NCBI RefSeq assembly: GCF_026151205.1
Contig: NC_087083.1
Coordinates: 3,238,536-3,302,535, forward strand
DNA from: Bolinopsis microptera
Taxonomy: Eukaryota > Ctenophora > Tentaculata > Lobata > Bolinopsidae
Direction of reading: 5' to 3'
DNA: 64,000 nt
Shown: in pieces, positions 5,157 to 49,457 of the stretch
Layout: the number at the start of each line of letters is the position of its first letter
Position numbering within the stretch: position 1 is the first letter of the stretch
The notes under the pieces: model-generated
Database searches by the model: none
What the model was told of the DNA's origin: nothing
What the model saw: the letters and a program-made list of their open reading frames with translations, nothing else
Position numbers and translations under genes: made by a program

Positions 5157-8100
5157 TCATCGCCTCCCTTGGGTTCTTGTTGAACACTGCTTTGTAACTG
5201 AACATTTGATCCGAGATTTTGTGGCGATTTTGTGGCGTTTTTGTTCTGGAGGAGTCATCGCTGGTGATATATCTCCTGGAGCAACTGTTGTGTGGGCTCT
5301 CACGTGTGAAGTATCTTGAGTTTGAATTTGATTCATCTCTAACTCACTAGTCACTGCAGCCACAGGAGCTTCTGTCCTAAACGGTTCTCTTAATACTCTA
5401 ACTATTTTTGATAACAATACACTAACAGTTTCATCGTATAGTAGAGGATTGATGACTGAGTTAATGGGCAGGACGACAATGGAAAACAGGGAGTAATAAG
5501 GACTAGCGTCTGTCACTTCCAAAGAGTGGAGAAAACACATAACAATAAATGGTATCCAGCAACAGAAATCTGTCCCAATGATTAGAGTTACTTTTCTTTG
5601 AAGTCGCTTGTTTCTATTTCTAAGTTGCTCGTTTCCATTATTGTTAGCACATTGATTCGATGATCTGGCTGATATGAAATTAATGATAATATAAGCCACG
5701 GTAATCACTGCAAAGCATATGATGTTAAGAAGCAGTGTACACCACACATAAATCCGTTGAGGATCATCAGAAGTGACAAAATATTTGAAGAGGCATACTC
5801 CTGCGTTTCCGTAGAAATGAACCTGGTTCCTGGTGATTCCTCCAGCTACATACTCATCACTAAACATACTCATCACCAATCTGTCTATGTTTTTCCATGA
5901 GAGATCTTTATTTCTCATCCTTCCAAAGTATTCTTTAAAGATCTCGAGATGTTTAGATTTAGTCACAGATCCGACGAAAAGTGGGCTTCTGGGATAGTTG
6001 ATTCCGTTGACGAAGTAGTCTTCAAAGAGCTCAAACAAGGGCACTGCTGCCATTAAGCAGGAAGCTATGAGAATTAAGGTACCAATCAAAAATACGGGAA
6101 TGCTCGATTTTAAATTCGTTTCATCGCTGATAGATAATTTGCTCACTCTCAATAACCTGCTCAAACTCAAGACTGTCATTGAAAAGAGTGATAGCTGAGA
6201 ACCCACAGTATTGATGATTCCCACGATAGCGCATGATGTACTGGTTAACCATTCGAATCTGTTGGGACAATAATCATGGTAGTACACTCTGTGATAGATA
6301 GATATAGCTAAAAGATATACCCCTATCAAAAGGTCACCAAATGCTATGAGGAGGATGATAAGTTTGTTAAGAAGCATTGCCACTGTAGCAGCTTTTCTTA
6401 AAGTATACATCCCCCTCATAATTATGATGATGTTCAAAAGTGTCGCTAATGAGCCTAAAAGCCAGGCTACAGTTGTGAGAACAGTATTCTCAATGATCCG
6501 TACATTACATCTATCATTACATTCGTCTGAATAGTCTATACAGTCTGGTTTCCCATCGCAGACACTAGAAAGAGGAATATATTCTGTATCATTTGGGCAC
6601 TGAAAATGGTTATTACACAGTATTTCGTCGGAGAAATCCTTGCAATCATCTGCCAAGTTACAAACCTGCTCGTAAGGAATACATCTGCCATTTTCACAAG
6701 GAAACAAATTGTTGTGGTATTTGTTGTCTCCATACGGCAGAAGAAAGGTCAGAAAGTTGTTATCCGCGAGTGTGTAAACTCTTGAAGGGTACTGCCCAAG
6801 ACATGAATCATGTCTTATAGGATTCTCAAGTGGACAAATGGAAGTGGCACACTGGCCTATGCAGGAAAGATAGACATACATCTCACCGTACACATATTTG
6901 CAGTCAAACTTTGTTTCTGGAACATTCAAGAGGAGCTGTGTTCTTCCAAGAAGTTCATAGCCTAGGTATCCTAAATCTTTCTCCGAACAATTTCCTGCTA
7001 CGTAAGAAAGTTTGTCCAAACCTTTCAGACAGTACGAAACAGACAGGTGGTTGTTATAGCTATCTATCTTTTGGTGGATCCATGGAGAATCAAGAGCTTT
7101 GTGGCAGAGCGCATTCTCATTACCGCAAGTGTTATATTTGTCACACAGAAACTCAAATTCTATATGTCCAGAAGGAGGAAATCCACATAGGAAAACCTCT
7201 CCACATTCTTCATTATCTTTCTTGAGTCTCATTGTGGCTGGGGTGAAACCACAAGTTGGGTAAACTACTTCTTCATCTATACCATCTTCACAGTCCTTGT
7301 ATTCGTCATTTATCCAGCTCAAAGGTACTTTCAATAATCTGTTCTTCATACCAAATGCTCTTTTACATACAAACTTGCTCATACTACGGCAAGTGACAGG
7401 CAACTCGTCTGCCCCGTTGAAACAATCCTTAACTCTATCGCAAATTTGATGTTTGTGGACCTTACAAGTGATATCAATTCTCACGCACATGTCTTCAAAG
7501 CCGTCATCACAAAGTTGCAGACCTGTGATTCCATGGCATATCATTCTGTCAGCAACGGACACAGGGTAGCCGCCTCTAAAACATGTTAGGTTTGCAATTG
7601 AGGGGTCTGTGCAGTTTAGTTGGTCAGAGTAGTCGTCACAATATGGATATTTATTACGGTATAAGGGAGCACATCTTGTGCCATTTACGATAGGTCTTGT
7701 GATATCATCATTCATAACTCTCTGCTTACACAGCAGTCCTTCTTGACAGTTCATTTCATCTGTTCTATTAATACAATAAGGCCTATTGTCACACATCAAA
7801 AATGCTGATAAGTAACGAGGTCTTTGCAATGTAGAGTCTATAGAATTATAAGTGCAAAAGATCCCATAGGTAAACCCGTTGCAAATTGCCTCATCATCAC
7901 AAAAATAACAATCACAGACCTTATCACACAGACGGTTGGAATCGATCATTTCATTTTCGATTTTCCAAGGATTTCTACAAGTGTATGTATGATCCGTGTC
8001 ATCAGATACTGCACAAGTTTCTGTACTGTATTGAATGTTCTTGCATTCCTCATCATGTTCGCAGATGTCTTCTGAGCCGAATGTAGTATCTCCATTGTCA

Positions 8101-8207
8101 CAGACCGCACGAGCACACAAGAATTTGCTGTGATGATGCGTTTCCTCAATAGCAGTCATCCCCTCTTCACTTCCTTGATAGCAATTCAAGCTTATAGCTC
8201 CGCACAT
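5157..8207 (-). CDS. LDLa-repeat class A GPCR, last exon (exon 4 of 4)
   Basis: This exon encodes 1016 residues; with exons at 10849-10687, 10526-9339 and 8632-8433 the full protein is 1533 residues. It starts after a TTTCAG acceptor, so the ATG at 8207 is an internal Met, not the start. The first ~570 residues are cysteine-rich with many LDL-receptor class A-like repeats. The best pair lies around exon residues 500-570 (NLADDCKDFSDE, DGKPDCIDYSDEC). Seven hydrophobic segments follow from about residue 572, with a SLSRLLRV segment replacing DRY after TM3 and an NPLLY motif in TM7 (about residue 917), then a ~95-residue tail. This resembles relaxin-receptor/GRL101-like receptors in invertebrates. 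It is a plasma-membrane receptor; ligand unknown. Confidence 0.9.
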   Translation of the reverse strand: MCGAISLNCYQGSEEGMTAIEETHHHSKFLCARAVCDNGDTTFGSEDICEHDEECKNIQYSTETCAVSDDTDHTYTCRNPWKIENEMIDSNRLCDKVCDCYFCDDEAICNGFTYGIFCTYNSIDSTLQRPRYLSAFLMCDNRPYCINRTDEMNCQEGLLCKQRVMNDDITRPIVNGTRCAPLYRNKYPYCDDYSDQLNCTDPSIANLTCFRGGYPVSVADRMICHGITGLQLCDDGFEDMCVRIDITCKVHKHQICDRVKDCFNGADELPVTCRSMSKFVCKRAFGMKNRLLKVPLSWINDEYKDCEDGIDEEVVYPTCGFTPATMRLKKDNEECGEVFLCGFPPSGHIEFEFLCDKYNTCGNENALCHKALDSPWIHQKIDSYNNHLSVSYCLKGLDKLSYVAGNCSEKDLGYLGYELLGRTQLLLNVPETKFDCKYVYGEMYVYLSCIGQCATSICPLENPIRHDSCLGQYPSRVYTLADNNFLTFLLPYGDNKYHNNLFPCENGRCIPYEQVCNLADDCKDFSDEILCNNHFQCPNDTEYIPLSSVCDGKPDCIDYSDECNDRCNVRIIENTVLTTVAWLLGSLATLLNIIIIMRGMYTLRKAATVAMLLNKLIILLIAFGDLLIGVYLLAISIYHRVYYHDYCPNRFEWLTSTSCAIVGIINTVGSQLSLFSMTVLSLSRLLRVSKLSISDETNLKSSIPVFLIGTLILIASCLMAAVPLFELFEDYFVNGINYPRSPLFVGSVTKSKHLEIFKEYFGRMRNKDLSWKNIDRLVMSMFSDEYVAGGITRNQVHFYGNAGVCLFKYFVTSDDPQRIYVWCTLLLNIICFAVITVAYIIINFISARSSNQCANNNGNEQLRNRNKRLQRKVTLIIGTDFCCWIPFIVMCFLHSLEVTDASPYYSLFSIVVLPINSVINPLLYDETVSVLLSKIVRVLREPFRTEAPVAAVTSELEMNQIQTQDTSHVRAHTTVAPGDISPAMTPPEQKRHKIATKSRIKCSVTKQCSTRTQGRR

Positions 8208-8432
8208 CTGAAATATAATAATCTTATTCCCATTTTCTAAGATGAAAATTCTAGTAAAGCAACACTATGTTGTCATGAATATTATAATTGTGTGTCAGAC
8301 CTGTCCCGTACTTTGACAAGCCACTAATGTATCATCGCCATATAAACGCTCCATCTTTAAGTCAAGGATAAGTCCGTGGTCACCATTTTAAGATACTCAC
8401 TTCATTTAAAATCAATTTATTAACAGTTTTAC

Positions 8433-26150: not shown

Positions 26151-26279
26151 ACATAGTAAGATAGCAACAATACAGGAACCGTCCAACATGCAAACTATGT
26201 ATATTCACGATTGCGAACCGTAAAAAACGATCGCCGAAAACTGTACGTATATATTAAGGAGCAGGGCCCTATAGATTAC

Positions 26280-26460
26280 TGTCACGAGTAACCATGAGTA
26301 ACCACTGTCACGAGTATCCATTAGTAACCACTGTCACAAGTAAGCATTAGTAACCACTGTCACGAGTAACCATTAGTAACCACTGTCACGAGTAACCATT
26401 AGTAACTACTGTCAGTGTCACAAGTAACCATTAGTAACCACTATCACGAGTAATAAATAA
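26280..26460 (+). repeat. 24-26-bp minisatellite (inverted counterpart at 49.2-49.46 kb)
   Basis: About seven units of the type CTGTCACGAGTAACCATTAG. The reverse complement of the same unit forms an array at 49300-49460. A single related piece (AGTAACCATTAGCAGG) lies at 23052. Confidence 0.85.
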
Positions 26461-26591: not shown

Positions 26592-28363
26592 TGACAATCC
26601 TGTGTAATCCTGTGTAATCCTGTGTAATCCTGTGTAATCCTGTGTAATCCTGTGTAATCCTGTGTAATCCTGTGTAATCCTGTGTAATCCTGTGTAATCC
26701 TGTGTAGCTCTGTGTAATCCTGTGTAATCCCGTTTAATCCTGTGTAATCCTGTGTAATCCTGTGTAATCCTGTGTAATCCTGTGTAATCCTGTGTAATCC
26801 TGTGTAATCCTGTGTAATCCTGTGTAATCCTTTGTAATCCTGTGTAATCCTGTGTAATCCTGTGTAATCCTGTGTAATCCTGTGTAATCCAGTGTAATCC
26901 TGTGTAATCCTGTGTAATCCTGTGTAATCCTGTGTAATCCTGTGTAATCCTTTGTAATCCTGTGTAATCCTGTGTAATCCTGTGTAATCCCGTTTAATCC
27001 TGTGTAATCCTGTGTAATCCTGTGTAATCCTGTGTAATCCTGTGTAATCCTGTGTAATCCTGTGTAATCCTGTGTAATCCTGTGTAATCCAGTGTACTCC
27101 TGTGTAATCCTGTGTAATCCTGTGTAATCCTGTGTAATCCTGTGTAATCCTGTGTAATCCTTTGTAATCCTGTGTAATCCTGTGTAATCCTGTGTAATCC
27201 CGTTTAATCCTGTGTAATCCTGTGTAATCCTTTGTAATCCTGTGTAATCCTGTGTAATCCTGTGTAATCCTGTGTAATCCTGTGTAATCCTGTGTAATCC
27301 CGTTTAATCCTGTGTAATCTTGTGTAATCCTGTGTAATCCTGTGTAGCTCTGTGTAATCCTGTGTAATCCTGTGTAATCCTGTGTAATCCTGTGTAATCC
27401 TGTGTAATCCTGTGTAATCCTGTGTAATCCTGTGTAATCCTGTGTAATCCTGTGTAATCCTGTGTAATCCAGTGTAATCCTGTGTAATCCAGTGTAATCC
27501 TGTGTAATCCTGTGTAATCCTGTGTAATCCTGTGTAATCCAGTGTAATCCTGTGTAATCCTGTGTAATCCTGTGTAATCCTTTGTAATCCTGTGTAATCC
27601 TGTGTAATCCTGTGTAATCCCGTTTAATCCTGTGTAATCCTGTGTAATCCTGTGTAATCCTGTGTAATCCTGTGTAATCCAGTGTACTCCTGTGTAATCC
27701 TGTGTAATCCTGTGTAATCCTGTGTAATCCTGTGTAATCCTGTGTAATCCTTTGTAATCCTGTGTAATCCTGTGTAATCCTGTGTAATCCCGTTTAATCC
27801 TGTGTAATCCTGTGTAATCCTTTGTAATCCTGTGTAATCCTGTGTAATCCTGTGTAATCCTGTGTAATCCTGTGTAATCCTGTGTAATCCTGTGTAATCC
27901 TGTGTAATCCTGTGTAATCCTGTGTAATCCTGTGTAATCCTGTGTAATCCTGTGTAATCCTGTGTAATCCTGTGTAATCCTTTGTAATCCTGTGTAATCC
28001 TGTGTAATCCTGTGTAATCCCGTTTAATCCTGTGTAATCCTGTGTAATCCTGTGTAATCCTGTGTAATCCTGTGTAATCCTGTGTAATCCTGTGTAATCC
28101 TGTGTAATCCTGTGTAATCCAGTGTACTCCTGTGTAATCCTGTGTAATCCTGTGTAATCCTGTGTAATCCTGTGTAATCCTGTGTAATCCTTTGTAATCC
28201 TGTGTAATCCTGTGTAATCCTGTGTAATCCCGTTTAATCCTGTGTAATCCTGTGTAATCCTTTGTAATCCTGTGTAATCCTGTGTAATCCTGTGTAATCC
28301 TGTGTAATCCTGTGTAATCCTGTGTAATCCCGTTTAATCCTGTGTAATCTTGTGTAATCCTGT
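26592..28363 (+). repeat. 10-bp satellite (TGTGTAATCC) with higher-order structure
   Basis: About 177 units of TGTGTAATCC in strict 10-bp phase. Variants recur in fixed order: TTTGTAATCC is followed 40 bp later by CGTTTAATCC six times (26951, 27161, 27581, 27751, 27981, 28191). A longer module starting AGTGTACTCC occurs at 27091, 27681 and 28121. So amplification happened in blocks as well as by single units. No gene inside. Confidence 0.95.
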
Positions 28364-29140
28364 TAATTAGATTAAGTTGGTCATCTCACATAAAAGCTTT
28401 AAAGTGTAAAATGGCATACTGTACAAAATTAAATTATACATTCCCTCAGAAGTTAGAACTCAAATCTACCACAGTTTTATTCAGTTTTATTCCTTGGTCT
28501 GGTCCAAGACCAAAATCGAGTGCTTATTCCGTCAACGAAAGAAAGGTATTAGAGCCGTAATGCAAGGATTTGTGAATTATTTTTATAATGATGGGACATT
28601 TCCTATAACTGACACCAAATCTTTTTTCAGCAGCCATTCAATCTTAACCATACACATCATAATCTTATTTTATTCACTAATTTTTACAAATAAAATTTTC
28701 TATTTCTCCAATCAGCTCCCTCCAATAGTTGCAAAAACTATTTACGAATATATGCTGTCTCAAAACTCAGAAGTTATCACTGAGGCTAACTTACTAACTG
28801 TGAATGGTTCAATGACTGCAATACCGCCACACATAGAAATTCGATATTCTTCAACGGCCCACTCCTATTTGTAGACGCATCGATAGACGAAGCTTCCAAT
28901 TCACTGTCATGCCAATAGCTGAAGGCGTTCAAATCACTATGCAAGAGAACAGTACTAAGGATGCAGAAGGGGGTTAATAATGTAAATGAGCTTGGTCCAC
29001 GAGTAAAATTTCTCATCCACGAAATGAGCGGCCTCCGTACGTAGGTCCAATAGAAATAGAGATTCGTAATTGTTTTTGCTGCTAATTGGCTAAATCCAGC
29101 GTCCAGAATTGAGTTTCAAATTTGTTTTTTAATTCCTAAT
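28364..29140. other. Non-coding, AT-rich
   Basis: Contains a small hairpin TTGGTCT..AGACCAA near 28494 and one open frame (28494-28874) of AT-rich composition that resembles no protein I know. No supported gene. Confidence 0.4.
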
Positions 29141-36035: not shown

Positions 36036-37760
36036 TTATAAAAGGAATTTCCGTTTATGGCGGCATTTTGTGAGGATTTCCGTCCTGGAGTTAAGTAAGT
36101 GTGGGTCAGAGGATCGAAGTAAGATTTCTAATTTCTCAGACGTGCACAGATCGCAGCTGTTCTGGCCGGCTCTGTATCCGTGTCCACGTCTGATTATTTT
36201 CCATTCGATCCTGAATTCTAACCCACGGTCTTTGAAGGACCAGATCTTCTCCGACAGTTTGGTTCTATTTCGGTACCGCTCCAGGCGAAATGATGACGTG
36301 TGCCCGTTGTACCGGTCCTTGAATGTGCCCTCCGTCATTCCGATGTAGTGGTGCTTCTCATTTTCCGTACGGAGGGTCGCCATGTATACCACAGACTTCG
36401 ATAGGCACTTTCCGTCTAGTGGGCAGGAGTTCCTGGAGCGGCAGTTGCACTGCCGTGTGGTGGGTTCCTGGGTTTCCTGGTGCTGACGAAGCAACTGCTT
36501 GTTCCGGGATTTTATGAGGCATTCCATGTTTTTCATACAGCTGTATGAGACTTTTACACTGTTCCGGTTCAAGATCTTGTGTAGTGGATTGTCCTGAGGG
36601 AAGTGTTTCTCCAACAGATTGAAGAATTTCCTTCCAACATTGGTCTCCACAGTGACAGAGAAGGGGGGATTGAACCAAAGGACCCTGCGTTTCCTCCTTC
36701 TATTACGTGGTGGTTTTGCCTCGCCTGCCTGGGTGTTGTAGGTCATGCACGAGTCCATATAGCCGCTTGACTTCAAAGCATCCTCGTAGTAAGGCTTGGC
36801 GTCGTCGAACACCTCCTTACAGGAAGATATGCTGTTGATTCGGTCAGCGATCATCTCCGGGATGTTGCGGATGATGGACGGTGGGTGATTTGACTGGCGG
36901 TGTACATATTTCGTTACCTTCTCCGCTTTGCGGAATGGCCGGAAGGAGCCATCCGATCGGAAGGTGACGTCGAGGAAGTCAACAGATGTGGATGGTGGGG
37001 ACACAGTGATCTTCAAGCCCTCTCTCCGGAATGTAGCAAACAAATCCTTCCGAATCCGCTCCATTCTGGGGCCGGGTGTGTCTGTCAGCATCACGAGTCC
37101 ATCGTCCCTATAGAGGCCGTGGGATTGTTGTGGGAGGATATCTCCGATCTGGGATAGTAGGTACACACCAACCAGCTCGCATACTTCTGCGCCGTCGGGG
37201 GCACCCATTGTTACATCGAACAGGGAGTCCTTTCTCTGCCAGGTTTCCCCTCGCGGACAGAACAAGAGGGAGAGTCGGCTGTGTTTGATGGTGTCGATGT
37301 CTTCCTCTGAGATGTTGATGTGTTCTTGTGCAAACTGGAGGGCCCTGTCTAGAAGATTCTCACTGATGGAAGGATAGAACGACTCAATGTCGAACTGGAG
37401 AAACTGGACATGCCCGGGTGTACAGTTGGTCTCGAACCAAGAAATAACCTCTCCGGTGCTCCGCCACTGGTTGACAGAGGAAGAAGTACGGAGTTGGGCG
37501 GTGAATTTCTCGAGGATTTTTTTGCTAACTCGTCCAACATCTGACTTGGCTGGATTTATCAGGCGACAAGGAAGGTTAGTAGCGAAATTTGGCTTATGGT
37601 CCTTGAGCAGTACGAATGCCTGGGACGTTTCGAAGCGTTGCATCCGTCCCTTCAGGTCTAAGCGGGCGGCGATGGAGGCTGCCTTATTCTCAATATGCTC
37701 TGCGGTGCCTGCGGGGGCCTTACGATATTCTGCTGTGATGCTGGACTCAATGAGTCGTTG
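36036..37760 (-). pseudogene. Penelope-like RT/GIY-YIG ORF lacking its N-terminus
   Basis: The frame is open from the junction (RLIESSITAEYRK) to the normal stop and keeps the RT box YRDD and the GIY-YIG domain. About the first 130 residues are missing. An upstream ATG is supplied only by the antisense of the neighbouring tail copy, so a normal product is unlikely. Confidence 0.85.
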
Positions 37761-38251
37761 AGAAGCACCACTACATCGGAATGACGGAGGGCACATTCAA
37801 GGACCGGTACAACGGGCACACGTCATCATTTCGCCTGGAGCGGTACCGAAATAGAACCAAACTGTCGGAGAAGATCTGGTCCTTCAAAGACCGTGGGTTA
37901 GAATTCAGGATCGAATGGAAAATAATCAGACGTGGACACGGATACAGAGCCGGCCAGAACAGCTGCGATCTGTGCACGTCTGAGAAATTAGAAATCTTAC
38001 TTCGATCCTCTGACCCACACTTACTTAACTCCAGGACGGAAATCCTCACAAAATGCCGCCATAAACGGAAATTCCTTTTATAATCTAATGACTCATACAT
38101 CTAACCCCTAGTATTGTTTCACGAGTGATTGTTTATGTTAAATTTTAGCTTTGTAATTTTGATTTTAGTTCCTATACCTCAGTTGTCACTGATGATATCA
38201 TGGTTTTGTATCATGATTGAAACATTTGTCTGACTCAACCGGTCGTTTCAT
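37761..38251 (+). mobile_element. Penelope-like element, tail-only copy (pseudo-LTR)
   Basis: Carries only the last ~107 codons of the ORF (from EKHHYIGMTEGTF) and the 3' UTR, directly followed by the intact unit. Tandem partial copies upstream of a full unit, with an inverted piece further out, are a known arrangement of Penelope-like elements. Confidence 0.85.
38179..38240 (+). ncRNA. Minimal hammerhead ribozyme motif (PLE tail copy)
   Basis: Seen directly: CTGATGA (38189-38195); stem II ATCATG/CATGAT (38197-38202, 38212-38217) with a 9-base loop; GAAA (38219-38222); a stem III of two pairs closed by ATTT; and GTC (38228-38230). Stem I pairs GTCA (38185-38188) with TGAC (38231-38234), plus GTT/AAC after a two-base bulge. 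The only irregularity is a U-U in place of the usual pair at the base of stem II. Established knowledge: PLE terminal repeats of several animals carry such minimal hammerheads. Activity is inferred. Confidence 0.7.
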
Positions 38252-38366
38252 TTTGTATCTAGCTCTCGGCTTGCCGATTGAGCACTGTAAGCAGACGACG
38301 CCACCCACAATTAACTAGCTCTCCCTGGGAAACCAGAGATTGAGCACTTTTCGTCAACTGCCATTC

Positions 38367-40481
38367 ATGGAATTGACACACTACGGTTACTCCCTAAAGA
38401 ACATTCCCCGATGCTCAAAAGACGCCTACTTAAAAGCCCTGATTACCCGAACTGAAGACTTCCTGATCCGCCTGCGTTGGAAGGCTTTCTTCTTCCTTCT
38501 CGGCCCCGAGCCACCAGACGAGGAGATGAAGGAAACCTACGGCTTCCGCTCCAACAAATCTCCCCCTGTGGTAAATGAGCTTGTGGCGTTCGAAAGCGAC
38601 ATATACCAGCTAATCGCATCGATAAAGTTTAGGCACGCTCCAAGTACTTTCCTAGACCGTCTCGACTCGGACGCTGCCCGCATAAAATCATCGACCACAG
38701 CCCTTATCCCTACCGATAAAACCAGCCAACATTATCGGATCCCTATCGACGAATATCAACGACTCATTGAGTCCAGCATCACAGCAGAATATCGTAAGGC
38801 CCCCGCAGGCACCGCAGAGCATATTGAGAATAAGGCAGCCTCCATCGCCGCCCGCTTAGACCTGAAGGGACGGATGCAACGCTTCGAAACGTCCCAGGCA
38901 TTCGTACTGCTCAAGGACCATAAGCCAAATTTCGCTACTAACCTTCCTTGTCGCCTGATAAATCCAGCCAAGTCAGATGTTGGACGAGTTAGCAAAAAAA
39001 TCCTCGAGAAATTCACCGCCCAACTCCGTACTTCTTCCTCTGTCAACCAGTGGCGGAGCACCGGAGAGGTTATTTCTTGGTTCGAGACCAACTGTACACC
39101 CGGGCATGTCCAGTTTCTCCAGTTCGACATTGAGTCGTTCTATCCTTCCATCAGTGAGAATCTTCTAGACAGGGCCCTCCAGTTTGCACAAGAACACATC
39201 AACATCTCAGAGGAAGACATCGACACCATCAAACACAGCCGACTCTCCCTCTTGTTCTGTCCGCGAGGGGAAACCTGGCAGAGAAAGGACTCCCTGTTCG
39301 ATGTAACAATGGGTGCCCCCGACGGCGCAGAAGTATGCGAGCTGGTTGGTGTGTACCTACTATCCCAGATCGGAGATATCCTCCCACAACAATCCCACGG
39401 CCTCTATAGGGACGATGGACTCGTGATGCTGACAGACACACCCGGCCCCAGAATGGAGCGGATTCGGAAGGATTTGTTTGCTACATTCCGGAGAGAGGGC
39501 TTGAAGATCACTGTGTCCCCACCATCCACATCTGTTGACTTCCTCGACGTCACCTTCCGATCGGATGGCTCCTTCCGGCCATTCCGCAAAGCGGAGAAGG
39601 TAACGAAATATGTACACCGCCAGTCAAATCACCCACCGTCCATCATCCGCAACATCCCGGAGATGATCGCTGACCGAATCAACAGCATATCTTCCTGTAA
39701 GGAGGTGTTCGACGACGCCAAGCCTTACTACGAGGATGCTTTGAAGTCAAGCGGCTATATGGACTCGTGCATGACCTACAACACCCAGGCAGGCGAGGCA
39801 AAACCACCACGTAATAGAAGGAGGAAACGCAGGGTCCTTTGGTTCAATCCCCCCTTCTCTGTCACTGTGGAGACCAATGTTGGAAGGAAATTCTTCAATC
39901 TGTTGGAGAAACACTTCCCTCAGGACAATCCACTACACAAGATCTTGAACCGGAACAGTGTAAAAGTCTCATACAGCTGTATGAAAAACATGGAATGCCT
40001 CATAAAATCCCGGAACAAGCAGTTGCTTCGTCAGCACCAGGAAACCCAGGAACCCACCACACGGCAGTGCAACTGCCGCTCCAGGAACTCCTGCCCACTA
40101 GACGGAAAGTGCCTATCGAAGTCTGTGGTATACATGGCGACCCTCCGTACGGAAAATGAGAAGCACCACTACATCGGAATGACGGAGGGCACATTCAAGG
40201 ACCGGTACAACGGGCACACGTCATCATTTCGCCTGGAGCGGTACCGAAATAGAACCAAACTGTCGGAGAAGATCTGGTCCTTCAAAGACCGTGGGTTAGA
40301 ATTCAGGATCGAATGGAAAATAATCAGACGTGGACACGGATACAGAGCCGGCCAAAACAGCTGCGATCTGTGCACGTCTGAGAAATTAGAAATCTTACTT
40401 CGATCCTCTGACCCACACTTACTTAACTCCAGGACGGAAATCCTCACAAAATGCCGCCATAAACGGAAATTCCTTTTATAA
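38367..40481 (+). CDS. Penelope-like reverse transcriptase with C-terminal GIY-YIG endonuclease
   Basis: 704 residues from the first in-frame ATG after a TAG. The RT has FDIESFYPSIS (Asp about 254), MGAPDGAEVCELVG, and the catalytic box LYRDDGLVML (residues about 346-355). A linker follows with CNCRSRNSCPLDGKC, the cysteine motif that precedes the nuclease in EN+ Penelope-like elements. Then comes the GIY-YIG-type domain: VVYMATL, HYIGMTEGTFKDRY, with Arg and conserved SSFRLERYRN. The frame is complete and uninterrupted, so the element may be competent. It acts on its own RNA in the nucleus, by target-primed reverse transcription (known for the family). Confidence 0.92.
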   Translation: MELTHYGYSLKNIPRCSKDAYLKALITRTEDFLIRLRWKAFFFLLGPEPPDEEMKETYGFRSNKSPPVVNELVAFESDIYQLIASIKFRHAPSTFLDRLDSDAARIKSSTTALIPTDKTSQHYRIPIDEYQRLIESSITAEYRKAPAGTAEHIENKAASIAARLDLKGRMQRFETSQAFVLLKDHKPNFATNLPCRLINPAKSDVGRVSKKILEKFTAQLRTSSSVNQWRSTGEVISWFETNCTPGHVQFLQFDIESFYPSISENLLDRALQFAQEHINISEEDIDTIKHSRLSLLFCPRGETWQRKDSLFDVTMGAPDGAEVCELVGVYLLSQIGDILPQQSHGLYRDDGLVMLTDTPGPRMERIRKDLFATFRREGLKITVSPPSTSVDFLDVTFRSDGSFRPFRKAEKVTKYVHRQSNHPPSIIRNIPEMIADRINSISSCKEVFDDAKPYYEDALKSSGYMDSCMTYNTQAGEAKPPRNRRRKRRVLWFNPPFSVTVETNVGRKFFNLLEKHFPQDNPLHKILNRNSVKVSYSCMKNMECLIKSRNKQLLRQHQETQEPTTRQCNCRSRNSCPLDGKCLSKSVVYMATLRTENEKHHYIGMTEGTFKDRYNGHTSSFRLERYRNRTKLSEKIWSFKDRGLEFRIEWKIIRRGHGYRAGQNSCDLCTSEKLEILLRSSDPHLLNSRTEILTKCRHKRKFLL

Positions 40482-42443: not shown

Positions 42444-42643
42444 AGGACGCTGAACACGATAAAACTGGTTATAATTATCATACTCAAGGACACATTGCTT
42501 TAAAATGCACTCGGATGTCATAGATGTTATTATAAGCTAAGTAAGGACGCTGAACACGATAAAACTGGTTATAATTATCATACTCAAGGACACATTGCTT
42601 TAAAATGCACTCGGATGTCATAGATGTTATTATAAGCTAAGTT
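42444..42643 (+). repeat. Exact 100-bp tandem duplication
   Basis: 42444-42543 and 42544-42643 are identical (both begin AGGACGCTGAACACG). No mismatches seen, so the event is recent. Confidence 0.95.
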
Positions 42644-45872: not shown

Positions 45873-46414
45873 TGGGCTGCAATCCTTGACAGGCCTTTAA
45901 TTACCCAATTTTAAATTAACGATATCTCATTCTACAGTATGATGAGAAGGTAAAGAGAATGCTTCCCGGAATCAGCACAATGAAGGTAACAAGATGCTGT
46001 TGGAATTTTAATTATTCGTCTTCCACCCGTAGTCCCTACAAACTTTACAAATACGAATAATAACGGTTCACGTACTGTAGTGCGACACGTACTCTAGTGC
46101 GACACGTACCATAGTGCGAAACCTCCAAGATCGACACTGTCGCAGTAGAGTACGCTACCTGGATCGTAGTGCGACACGTACCCTAGTGCGACAGAGAATT
46201 TTCAAGGCCGACACTGTCGCACTACAGTGCGCTACCTGGACTGTAGTGCGACACGTACTAAAGTGCGACAAAACACTTTACACATTCAATACAAATTTTA
46301 CTTACCATTTTTAATGACAAGAGTGTAGTCGTGTATGAGTAATGGGGTTAAATATAAAATCAAAGATTGCAATCACAATATTCAATTCAAAATCATTGTT
46401 CCAACACACTTCAA

Positions 46415-46662
46415 CTAATCCATTCTGTCATAATCATCGTAGCTATCAATCACAGCGTTCAAGCGACGGTCGTAATCAGTCCACTCCTTCATTCGGCGAG
46501 GAGGTAGTTGTCTGAGCATCTTCATTCTTCTGGTTGATCTTCCATTGGGTTAGATCCTGCTCCTTCTTCAGGACGTCGATAAATCGCCAGATAGTAGGGT
46601 TGGTGCAGCCCATCAAGGGGGAGAGGAGGTTTGTGTTCCGACCCAGGTACGTTCGTAGTAGT
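46415..46662 (-). pseudogene. MULE transposase C-terminal fragment
   Basis: Reading downstream of the FLYWCH frame on the minus strand: LMGCTNPTIWRFIDVLKKEQ, typical of the last part of MULE-associated ORFs. A one-base frameshift follows, then KEWTDYDRRLNAVIDSYDDY and a stop at 46415. The catalytic middle has been lost. Confidence 0.6.
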
Positions 46663-46664
46663 CA

Positions 46665-46889
46665 CTAGGCAGCAAAGGAATCCATCTCCGAGGGAAGGGT
46701 TGCTTTCAGCTGCGTCCAGGTCACAGTAGTGCTGTTCGTCAGACTGAGACGTCCGGAGCAGGTCTTCTCAGTGCATCGCCAGTAGGTCTTGTCGTCGCGA
46801 TTCTTATCCAGGCAGTAGCGGTATCCGTCGTGGATAACGTTTCTTGAACCAGTAGTGCGTCCAGGAATGAGGGTGATTGAAGAAGACAT
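46665..46889 (-). CDS. FLYWCH-type zinc-finger fragment of a MULE
   Basis: 74 residues from ATG at 46889. RNVIHDGYRYCLDKNRDDKT followed by YWRCTEKTCSGRLSL has the spacing of FLYWCH fingers (G-Y-x-Y...WRC....C.GRL), a DNA-binding module commonly fused to Mutator-like transposases. The C-terminal histidines are missing because the frame diverges after SLTNSTT. Deleted element; probably not functional on its own. Confidence 0.65.
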   Translation of the reverse strand: MSSSITLIPGRTTGSRNVIHDGYRYCLDKNRDDKTYWRCTEKTCSGRLSLTNSTTVTWTQLKATLPSEMDSFAA

Positions 46890-47462
46890 GTTGATGTTGT
46901 TCGATGCTTTGGTAGAATCATCGTGACCTTATTTATGGCCCAAGCATATGAACTTGTTATCCCAATCGGAGATATACCTTCATACGATGCGTGTGATAGG
47001 AATGAGGATCATATGCTGCTTAAGAGTTACCCAGTGGATCACACACTGCATACGTGGCTTGAACTGACCCGAAGGAATTATGATCAGTGGATAACTTCGA
47101 AACACGTGATGTGAACCGACGAATCGTATTCGCAAGATCACTTCGAAATAAGTGACGTGAACCGACCCGACGAATCACTTAATGGTCCATAAGAAGGATA
47201 AGATGTGCCTGAACTTGGATATAAGTCAGGATATTTTGTCGCATTAGAGTACGCTACCTGGATCGTAGTGCGACACGTACGGTAGTGCGACAGAGGGTGT
47301 TTTTGTCGGACTTCGCACTAAAGTACGTGTCGCTCTAGAGTATGTGTCGCACTACAGTACGATTACCCCTCACTGTACAGGTACCCAGTTAGCTGGTTCG
47401 CTGTGGAAGTGTAGCTGATGTCTTCTACTGTGGAGGTACTGGTCTGTGAGCTGCTTCTCTGG

Positions 47463-48140
47463 TATTGTGACGTCATCGCTAGATAACGGATAGTTACTGT
47501 GATGTCATCACTAGATTACGGCTAGTTACTGTGACGTCATCACTAGATAACGGCTAGTTACTGTGACGTCATCACTAGATAACGGCTAGTTACTGTGACG
47601 TCATCACTAGATAACGGCTAGTTACTGTGACGTCATCACTAGATAACGGCTAGTTACTGTGATGTCATCACTAGATTACGGCTAGTTACTGTGACGTCAT
47701 CACTAGATAACGGCTAGTTACTGTGACGTCATCACTAGATAACGGCTAGTTACTGTGACGTCATCACTAGATAACGGCTAGTTACTGTGACGTCATCACT
47801 AGATAACGGCTAGTTACTGTGATGTCATCACTAGATTACGGCTAGTTACTGTGACGTCATCACTAGATAACGGCTAGTTACTGTGACGTCATCACTAGAT
47901 AACGGCTAGTTACTGTGACGTCATCACTAGATAACGGCTAGTTACTGTGACGTCATGGCTAGATAACGGCTAGTTACTGTGACGTCATCGCTAGATAACG
48001 GATTGTTACTGTGACGTCATCGCTAGATAACGGATTGTTACTGTGACGTCATCACTAGATAACGGCTAGTTACTGTGACGTCATCACTAGATAACGGCTA
48101 GTTACTGTGACGTCATCACTAGATAACGGCTAGTTACTAA
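47463..48140. repeat. 32-bp tandem array carrying palindromic TGACGTCA in nearly every unit
   Basis: Twenty-one units (unit GTTACTGTGACGTCATCACT then AGATAACGGCTA). The octamer, the consensus cAMP-response element / ATF-CREB site, starts at 47468 and recurs every 32 bp to 48108. Eighteen copies are perfect and three (47500, 47660, 47820) read TGATGTCA, together with a linked ATTACGG change, exactly 160 bp apart. So there is a five-unit higher-order repeat. Binding is inferred. Confidence 0.95.
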
Positions 48141-48564
48141 GCCATGACGTAACTAGCATAAGTATAATAATTACAGAAAACTTTTTTAATCAAGCCTGTA
48201 ATATAATTATAGCTGAGCACATCCTGATGCACTATTTTGAAGGCATGCTAAAGATGTGAATTGTGATGGGGATATTTTTTCTGTCACGTGACAACAATTA
48301 ACCAATCAGCAACAACAATTGACGAATCACACCCAAGAAACACTGCCATGTCTCAATCAAAACAATATTCCTCGCCTCCCCAGTCTTCACCTGCACAGCC
48401 CACATATAATTATATAACGAATTGTGGAAACAGGTACATGACGACACAAAGCAAACCCTAGCTCGAATATCACGTACAGGATATGACAATATAAAAGCGG
48501 GAGGTGAAGGCTACCAGCTCTCATTTAAGAAAATGTGAACGGTCAGTTATGGGAAATTTAAAAT
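48141..48564. other. Non-coding
   Basis: AT-rich sequence after the 32-bp array. No gene or repeat recognised. Confidence 0.4.
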
Positions 48565-48858
48565 AGTACGGTAAATCGGGGTACACGGTAAATCGGGGTA
48601 CACGGTAAATGGGGTACACGGTAAATCGGGGTACACGGTAAATCGGGGTACACGGTAAATCAGGGTACACGGTGAATCATGGTGCACGGTAAATAGGGGT
48701 TAAGGGGTAAACGGTAAATTGGGGTGCACAGTAAATCAGGGTGCATGGTAAATCAGGGTGCATGGTAAATCGGGGTACACGGTAAATCTGGGTGCACGGT
48801 ATATCAGGGTGCACGGTGAATCGGGATGCCTGGAAAATCATGGTGCACGGTAAATCAC
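48565..48858 (+). repeat. 17-bp minisatellite
   Basis: About 17 units of CGGTAAATCGGGGTACA, clean on the left and increasingly divergent to the right (ATCAGGGTGCA forms). One reverse-complement unit (CCCGATTTACCGTGCCCC) lies in intron 2 of the adhesion GPCR at 53357. Confidence 0.9.
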
Positions 48859-49204: not shown

Positions 49205-49457
49205 ACCTATTTGGTTACTCGGTTACTTATGGTAGTGGTTACTCAGTTACTTATGGTAGTGGTTACTCGGTTACTTATGGTAGTGGTTACTCGGTTACTT
49301 ATGGTAGTGGTTACTTGTGACAGTGATTACTAATGGTTACTTGTGACAGTGGTTACTAATGGTTACTCGTGACAGTGGTTACTAATGGTTACTCGTGACA
49401 GTGGTTACTAATGGTTACTCGTGACAGTGGTTACTAATGGTTACTCGTGACAGTGGT
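49205..49457 (+). repeat. Composite 24/26-bp minisatellite
   Basis: Left half: about four copies of TTACTCGGTTACTTATGGTA plus GTGG. Right half: about five copies of TTACTAATGGTTACTCGTGA plus CAGTGG. The right-half unit is the reverse complement of the array at 26280-26460. Confidence 0.9.

What the first reader, a model, noticed from the sequence alone, without database searches (positions are those of the whole stretch)
47463..48140. Array of 21 CRE/ATF-type palindromes at 32-bp spacing
Eighteen perfect TGACGTCA sites in one 678-bp array, three helical turns apart (32 bp), with a 160-bp higher-order repeat. Natural homotypic clusters of this density are unusual. It could act as a strong cAMP-responsive enhancer, a sink for CREB/ATF/bZIP factors, or be neutral expansion of a unit that happens to contain the site. 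It lies about 4.6 kb upstream of an adhesion GPCR.
Basis: partly seen in the sequence, partly recalled or inferred. Interest (0 to 1): 0.75.

Follow-up and report, generated by a model that had tools for sequence, protein, structure and literature searches.

The report
Tandem repeat built on CRE sites
A run of 21 near-identical 32-base DNA repeats, each carrying the binding site of a common family of gene regulators, turns out to be one of many otherwise unrelated repeats in this animal genome that share that site, which suggests that the site itself may help such repeats to arise.

Summary
In detail: 21 units of 32 bp (47466-48138), 18 with a perfect TGACGTCA and 3 with TGATGTCA, the three lying 160 bp apart. 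An adhesion GPCR 4.6 kb downstream is not supported; recognisable domains begin about 8 kb away.

The array is a minisatellite with two close relatives in the genome; the C12 one has 13 units and shares flanks in pieces over 5.5 kb. Genome-wide, TGACGTCA pairs 16-46 bp apart number 6,241 and TCACGTGA (E-box) pairs 6,406; eight control palindromes of the same composition give 1 to 565. The surplus sits in clusters. Nineteen loci with three or more sites, from half of one chromosome, fall into 13 spacer families, and all 76 octamers there read RTGACGTCAY. A synonymous word for the Asp-Val codons is not enriched, although some clusters are coding.

So at genome level the site is probably no passenger but a shared minisatellite core. 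I infer that bound or open CRE sites attract breakage or repair that seeds tandem duplication, and that arrays then grow by unequal exchange. For this array neutrality or a regulatory role is not excluded: its octamer is not significantly better kept than its spacer. The genome is most likely a ctenophore's.

The parts
47466..48138 (+). 32-bp minisatellite array, 21 units; 18 units with TGACGTCA
47498..47529 (+). variant unit (TGATGTCA plus A to T at unit position 20), first marker of the 160-bp block
47658..47689 (+). variant unit, second marker of the 160-bp block
47818..47849 (+). variant unit, third marker of the 160-bp block
47368..47465 (+). 5' flank shared with the C12:10.66 Mb relative
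   Evidence: L003 1501-2015 matches 47882-47368 at 93%
46071..47361 (.). probable insert with 50-nt inverted ends (92% complementary), present also in the C11 copy; it stops just before the shared 5' flank
48139..48242 (+). 3' flank shared with the C11 and C12 relatives
48252..48385 (+). old copy of a short dispersed element with TCACGTGA and CCAATCA; 37 dispersed matches reported
48568..48856 (+). neighbouring 17-bp array (ACGGTAAATCGGGGTGC), in the stretch shared with the C12 relative
49308..49457 (+). neighbouring 26-bp array (TGGTTACTCGTGACAGTGGTTACTAA), same family, inverted, at 26278-26453

Best explanation
The array is a minisatellite that belongs to a genome-wide class whose constant part is the CRE palindrome RTGACGTCAY and whose spacers are mostly unrelated between members; a parallel class is built on TCACGTGA. 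Shown: the class, its excess over same-composition palindromes, the unrelated spacers, and the five-unit (160-bp) block structure of this array. Inferred: a dimeric protein, most simply a CREB/ATF-type bZIP, binds the site; bound, nucleosome-poor sites suffer more breaks or more repair synthesis, so short tandem duplications arise around them more often; arrays then lengthen by unequal exchange or gene conversion. Any effect on transcription would be a by-product.
For: TGACGTCA pairs 16-46 bp apart: 6,241 against 417 for the reversed word; triples 3,488 against 324; TCACGTGA 6,406; eight control palindromes of the same composition 565, 417, 409, 275, 190, 11, 4, 1. Independent placement at the observed density would give about 37 pairs and 0.08 triples. 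In the first 100 listed sites of C1, 59 lie in 15 clusters and 41 are single. 19 loci of C1 fall into 13 spacer families. 76 of 76 octamers in them are flanked R..Y against 6 of 10 single sites (p = 0.024). A synonymous word, TGATGTTA, is not enriched: 517 and 375 on the two strands against 404 and 527 for its reversal. 10 of the 19 loci lie in the first 2.1 of 13.4 Mb. All 18 intact units of the array contain ACGTCAT, the M26 heptamer on the other strand; fission-yeast hotspots at ATGACGT depend on the ATF/CREB dimer Atf1-Pcr1 (PMC6827382, passages). Mnemiopsis has CREM, ATF2 and CREB3L3 genes (PMC10876535, passages).
Against: No break, binding or length-variation data. A review states that the full CRE in fission-yeast ade6 is neither bound by Atf1-Pcr1 nor recombinogenic (PMC9775316, one passage). 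In this array the octamer is not significantly better kept than the spacer. Counts are of pairs, so a few long arrays weigh heavily, and CRE and E-box arrays overlap in part (C1:1899591-1899654 is). Part of the CRE count is a dispersed element with a 22-bp pair (and L014), and its second site breaks the R..Y rule (21 of 22 clustered sites there, 17 of the 22 being in the window array). Two loci (L047, L049) share flanks and look like copies of one dispersed element. 0 of 95 minisatellites in the random sample carry the octamer, so the site is neither needed for minisatellites nor common among them. The 2.1-Mb boundary was chosen after seeing the positions, on one chromosome arm.
Confidence: 0.4

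Rival explanations
1. Neutral passenger: one founder unit contained a CRE by chance, was amplified by slippage or unequal exchange, and was copied to two further places with its flanks.
For: The array is homogenised in five-unit blocks; its relatives share flanks; octamer and spacer vary alike by column, 1 of 8 against 7 of 24, p = 0.64; the genome is rich in minisatellites without the site.
Against: The same octamer recurs in unrelated arrays far more than matched palindromes. Counted by cells, 3 of 272 octamer letters but 42 of 816 spacer letters depart from the unit consensus (sums), though these cells are not independent.
Confidence: 0.25
2. Homotypic CRE enhancer, promoter element or bZIP sink kept by selection.
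For: Eighteen full sites on one face of the helix; the class core extends to RTGACGTCAY, which fits bZIP preference (recalled); one cluster with unlike spacers in L023 precedes TATATA; a TCACGTGA, a CCAATCA and a TATAAAAG follow the array.
Against: The 3' sites lie in or beside an old dispersed element; no target gene or start site was found; long frames run through some sibling clusters; no significant octamer constraint in this array.
Confidence: 0.18
3. The site spreads with mobile elements: short inverted-repeat elements carry CRE and E-box palindromes, and arrays are their internal or terminal repeats.
For: A dispersed pair TGACGTCATCAAGGGGTGTYTATGACGTCA at three places of C1 and in L014; a dispersed element with E-box and CCAATCA beside the array; L047 and L049 share flanks; an insert with inverted ends adjoins the array.
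Against: No strong inverted pair encloses the array among the 25 longest of 50 pairs in 44.5-52.5 kb; the class has 13 spacer families in 19 loci; only two further close copies of this array were reported.
Confidence: 0.12
4. Coding repeat: TGACGTCA recurs because it encodes Asp-Val in protein repeats.
For: L041, L043, L044 and L058 read through as DV[T/I] repeats; the commonest spacing is divisible by three in 11 of 19 loci against 9 of 50 random minisatellites, p = 0.002.
Against: This array has period 32 and no frame over 24 codons. Frames of 100 or more codons cross 5 of 19 clusters against 340 of 2,000 random pieces, and of 80 or more 8 of 19 against 621 of 2,000. The synonymous word TGATGTTA is not enriched.
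Confidence: 0.03
5. Assembly artefact: the array or its copies are errors of a repeat-rich assembly.
For: The C11 copy has 117 gap openings over 2,363 aligned bases and may be a badly polished second version.
Against: The window array is clean, and the C12 relative is a different array with 13 units and other variants.
Confidence: 0.02

Closest known systems
Human minisatellites with a shared core (Jeffreys)
   Same: Many tandem arrays at different places share a short constant word inside otherwise different units; [quoted passage not shown]
   Different: The core here is an 8-10 bp palindrome that is a transcription-factor site, not the roughly 15-base human core; length variation between individuals was not tested.
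Fission-yeast M26 (CRE-like) and CCAAT meiotic hotspots
   Same: ATGACGT and CCAATCA, the motifs of PMC6827382 Table 1, are present: the first in every intact unit on the other strand, the second in the element beside the array.
   Different: No recombination data here; the yeast sites are single sites, not arrays; one review reports the full CRE in ade6 as inactive.
Homotypic clusters of CRE sites (CREB/ATF enhancers)
   Same: Dense full sites at near-helical spacing.
   Different: The spacing comes with a repeated 32-bp unit; no binding, cAMP response or target known; sibling clusters occur in reading frames.
CTEP1/CTEP2 loop anchors of the ctenophore Mnemiopsis leidyi
   Same: A CpG-bearing motif in a ctenophore with a proposed architectural role (PMC12221973, section 9 read).
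   Different: That motif is described as GC-rich with two CpGs; its letters are in a figure that is not held. TGACGTCA has one CpG and is 50% GC. Not comparable here.

Membership tests
Minisatellite | Head-to-tail units of about 7-100 bp (range recalled) | tested here: met
   21 units of 32 bp, 96% matches
Minisatellite | Turnover by block duplication or unequal exchange | tested here: met
   marker units 160 bp apart; the C12 relative has 13 units and other variants
Minisatellite | Length variation between individuals | not testable with these tools
   one assembly only
Minisatellite class with a shared core | One short word constant across unrelated arrays | tested here: met
   19 loci of C1 in 13 spacer families
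Minisatellite class with a shared core | The word exceeds matched control words | tested here: met
   6,241 and 6,406 against 1 to 565 for eight palindromes; not all 8-mers were counted
Minisatellite class with a shared core | Concentration toward chromosome ends (as recalled for human minisatellites) | tested here: inconclusive
   10 of 19 loci in the first 2.1 of 13.4 Mb of C1, p = 2e-4, boundary chosen afterwards
Homotypic CRE enhancer | Several full CREs close together | tested here: met
   18 in 673 bp
Homotypic CRE enhancer | Site kept better than spacer | tested here: inconclusive
   1 of 8 against 7 of 24 variable columns, p = 0.64
Homotypic CRE enhancer | bZIP occupancy and cAMP response | not testable with these tools
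   needs ChIP or CUT&RUN and a reporter
M26-type recombination hotspot | ATGACGT heptamer | tested here: met
   18 ACGTCAT in the array
M26-type recombination hotspot | Factor-dependent meiotic breaks | not testable with these tools
   no break map
Transposon-borne repeat | Inverted ends enclosing the array | tested here: not met
   none strong among the 25 longest of 50 pairs in 44.5-52.5 kb; weaker or more distant ends were not excluded
Ctenophore loop anchor (CTEP) | The GC-rich motif with two CpGs | not testable with these tools
   motif letters are in a figure not held

The most novel reading that the evidence does not exclude
In a ctenophore, CRE and E-box palindromes act as minisatellite-forming motifs: bZIP or bHLH-type dimers mark sites where germline breaks or repair are concentrated, so a transcription-factor site, rather than a PRDM9-type zinc-finger motif, seeds and feeds tandem repeats across the genome, reading frames included. 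The window's array would be an advanced stage of that process.
Probability: 0.22. Interest if true: 0.85.

Novelty: new variant of a known kind. Interest (0 to 1): 0.52.

Why it matters
Why some short sequences become minisatellites, and whether a core motif drives the repetition, is an old question. A genome in which one palindromic factor site recurs in many unrelated arrays, with matched palindromes as controls, makes it testable: mutation, breakage and occupancy of arrays with and without the core can be compared. If binding seeds duplication, it also links regulatory sites, repeat birth and protein repeats in an early-branching animal lineage.

Tried and rejected
Peptide-repeat origin for the whole class: disfavoured because the synonymous word is not enriched, though single loci are coding. 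Origin inside a host gene: the C12 relative has open frames beside its array, but of two peptides typed from it one gave no Pfam family and the other only a match at E 0.073, 13.7 bits against a cut-off of 26.9; a START-like look is my recall only. PRDM9-type SSXRD search: nothing rang in any control genome either, so uninformative. Folding three units as single-stranded DNA: modest (z -2.13, 7 of 200 shuffles as good), not pursued. Loop-anchor motif of Mnemiopsis: could not be compared. A link to the adhesion GPCR: no evidence. First idea that clusters with unlike spacers at 18, 21 or 24 bp are helically phased factor ladders: weakened when three of them (L041, L043, L044) proved to lie in long frames.

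Papers. TGACGTCA with minisatellite found 2 papers and TCACGTGA with minisatellite 1, judged from listings not to be on this subject. Searches were listings. Opened: PMC12221973 (passages, outline, section 9), PMC11797021 (passages), PMC6827382 (passages), PMC9775316 (one passage), PMC10876535 (passages), PMC2782130 (passages). No paper was read whole. 'I found nothing in print' rests only.

Rows dropped; overlapping tandem-repeat rows reduced to the best-scoring one; only periods 8-120 with 2 or more copies kept (121 arrays, 95 of them in the random sample); rows within 10 kb merged (22 to 19 loci); one stretch was fetched per merged locus, so the long array at C1:932020-932466 was read only in the listings; the array's own first unit, listed as single, left out of the 6 of 10; two of those 10 (L011) are copies of each other; spacers of 2 bp or over 38 bp left out; the 0.75 threshold lies above the 99th percentile of shuffled spacers (0.62) but below their maximum (0.90). 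The seven loci were picked mostly for diverged spacers; one search added the other 12 of 19, so counts over 19 are not picked. The genome figure of about 375 loci with three or more sites is extrapolated from half of C1.

Full report
What is there. The window lies at C12:3238536-3302535 of a 264.65-Mb assembly. The array is real: 21 units of 32 bp at 47466-48138, 18 with TGACGTCA and 3 with TGATGTCA. The three variant units carry the same second change and lie 160 bp apart, so the array grew in part by copying five-unit blocks (the growth is inferred).

Surroundings. Just 5' is a probable insert with 50-nt inverted ends, 46071-47361. Just 3' is an old copy of a short dispersed element with an E-box and CCAATCA; a search with 48139-48560 scored 40 of 45 candidates and reported 40 matches, of which 37 are dispersed stretches within query 114-247. 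Two close relatives of the array were reported. The C11 copy shares 45956-48242 with the window at 90% and shows the TGATGTCA marker in at least two units, but with 117 gap openings over 2,363 aligned bases; the indels look like poor consensus (inference). The C12:10.66 Mb relative has 13 units, all with a perfect octamer, and shares flanks in pieces between 47368 and 52911 at about 80-93%. It has no marker unit of the window's kind, so the two arrays turned over separately. More distant arrays on C9, C3 and C13 match at 69-79%.

No link to a receptor gene. The nearest adhesion-GPCR domain that passes its cut-off is at 56.06 kb. A FLYWCH frame and dispersed repeats lie between.

The genome-wide class. 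Two TGACGTCA 16-46 bp apart occur at 6,241 places, against 417 for the reversed word. Three in a row give 3,488 against 324. TCACGTGA gives 6,406. Eight palindromes of the same composition give 565 (GTACGTAC), 417 (ACTGCAGT), 409 (AGTGCACT), 275 (GTAGCTAC), 190 (TCAGCTGA), 11 (AGTCGACT), 4 (CATGCATG) and 1 (CATCGATG); their median is 232.5. Independent placement at the observed density would give about 37 pairs and 0.08 triples. All TGACGTCA sites number 17,804, against 7,512 for ACTGCAGT. Of the first 100 sites listed on C1 (to 1.53 Mb), 59 lie in 15 clusters and 41 are single, 26.7 per Mb, about the density of the control word genome-wide (28.4 per Mb, arithmetic). So the surplus of this word is mainly a surplus of clusters. 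These are counts of pairs, so long arrays weigh more, and the two classes overlap in part.

Unrelated spacers. I fetched one stretch for each of the 19 loci with three or more sites in C1 0-13.4 Mb. Their spacers fall into 13 families (15 for 22 loci, with the window, a C3 locus and L023 added) at a threshold above the 99th percentile, though below the maximum, of shuffled spacers. The octamer is preceded by a purine and followed by a pyrimidine in 76 of 76 cases, so the shared word is the 10-bp palindrome RTGACGTCAY. Unclustered sites in the other loci show this in 6 of 10 (p = 0.024 against 13 of 13 families). Clustered sites in those other loci show it in 21 of 22, 17 of the 22 being in the window array; the exception lies in a dispersed element in L014. 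In the random sample of 20 stretches of 10 kb, 95 minisatellites were found, 0 with the octamer, so the class is a small part of a minisatellite-rich genome.

Results against a simple regulatory reading. Four clusters lie in long reading frames as DV[T/I] repeats (L041, L043, L044, L058), and the commonest spacing is divisible by three in 11 of 19 loci, against 9 of 50 random minisatellites of period 16-46. But frames of 100 or more codons cross only 5 of 19 clusters, against 340 of 2,000 random pieces, and TGATGTTA, which encodes the same two residues, is not enriched: 517 and 375 against 404 and 527. The window's array has no frame over 24 codons. So the DNA word rather than the peptide recurs, in coding and non-coding places alike. 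A mutational process acting at the word fits this better than selection on transcription alone (inference).

Conservation test. Over the 34 units of the window array and its C12 relative, 1 of 8 octamer columns and 7 of 24 spacer columns vary (p = 0.64). By cells the octamer looks better kept (3 of 272 against 42 of 816, sums), but copies within blocks are not independent.

Mechanism. Recurrence of a palindrome across unrelated arrays, with 10 of 19 loci in the first 2.1 of 13.4 Mb of C1, recalls the shared core of human minisatellites and the fission-yeast hotspots at ATGACGT and CCAATCA, which need Atf1-Pcr1 and the Php proteins. I infer that bound sites concentrate breakage or repair, that short duplications around them are then more frequent, and that arrays lengthen by unequal exchange. 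Against this, the full CRE in ade6 is reported inactive, and I have no break or binding data for this animal.

Organism. C1-C13 have 15.2-26.2 Mb each. The ligand-binding stretch of one ionotropic glutamate receptor (L031) matches ML032222a best (E 1e-32), then a kainate-like receptor (5e-24), ahead of NMDA receptors (3e-16). That ML032222a is from Mnemiopsis leidyi is recalled. Another receptor (L029) does not show this order: its best match is a delta receptor (2e-30) and ML032222a comes lower (7e-23). A 265-Mb genome and 13 chromosomes are reported for Bolinopsis microptera, with 346 scaffolds against 232 contigs here (PMC11797021, passages). A ctenophore is likely; the species is not proven.

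Verdict. A real array, ordinary as a minisatellite, but a member of an unexpected class with a transcription-factor palindrome as core: a new variant of a known kind.

Noticed in passing
G000 genome-wide; C1 places listed: TCACGTGA (E-box) pairs number 6,406 genome-wide, a second palindrome as over-represented in short-spaced clusters as the CRE.
   Followed up: partly
L041, L043, L044, L058: CRE clusters inside long reading frames, read as DV[T/I] peptide repeats such as TPRDVTTPRDVITP.
   Followed up: partly
L042 1-200: The first CRE of a 20-bp array supplies the TGA stop of an open frame that looks PDZ-like by eye (not tested).
   Followed up: no
C11:19767396-19771080 (L002): Copy of 45956-48242 with very many small indels (117 gap openings in 2,363 aligned bases), perhaps an unpolished second version.
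   Followed up: no
36036-37796 (-) and 38319-40481 (+): Two inverted frames encode nearly the same protein, Penelope-like by eye (recalled); the first gave no Pfam family.
   Followed up: no
26278-26453 and 49308-49457: The same 26-bp minisatellite in inverted orientation, about 92% alike.
   Followed up: no
26596-28367: 177 copies of a 10-bp unit, AATCCTGTGT.
   Followed up: no
42444-42642: A 100-bp unit repeated twice with 100% identity.
   Followed up: no
5157-8264 (-): A 1,035-codon frame with LDL-receptor class A and rhodopsin-type 7TM domains.
   Followed up: no
C9:8448466-8449622 (L004, L005, L008): A long array whose unit, GTTACTGTGGAGATCACTAGGTTACAAGAGTT, resembles the window unit (69%) but lacks the CRE.
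   Followed up: no
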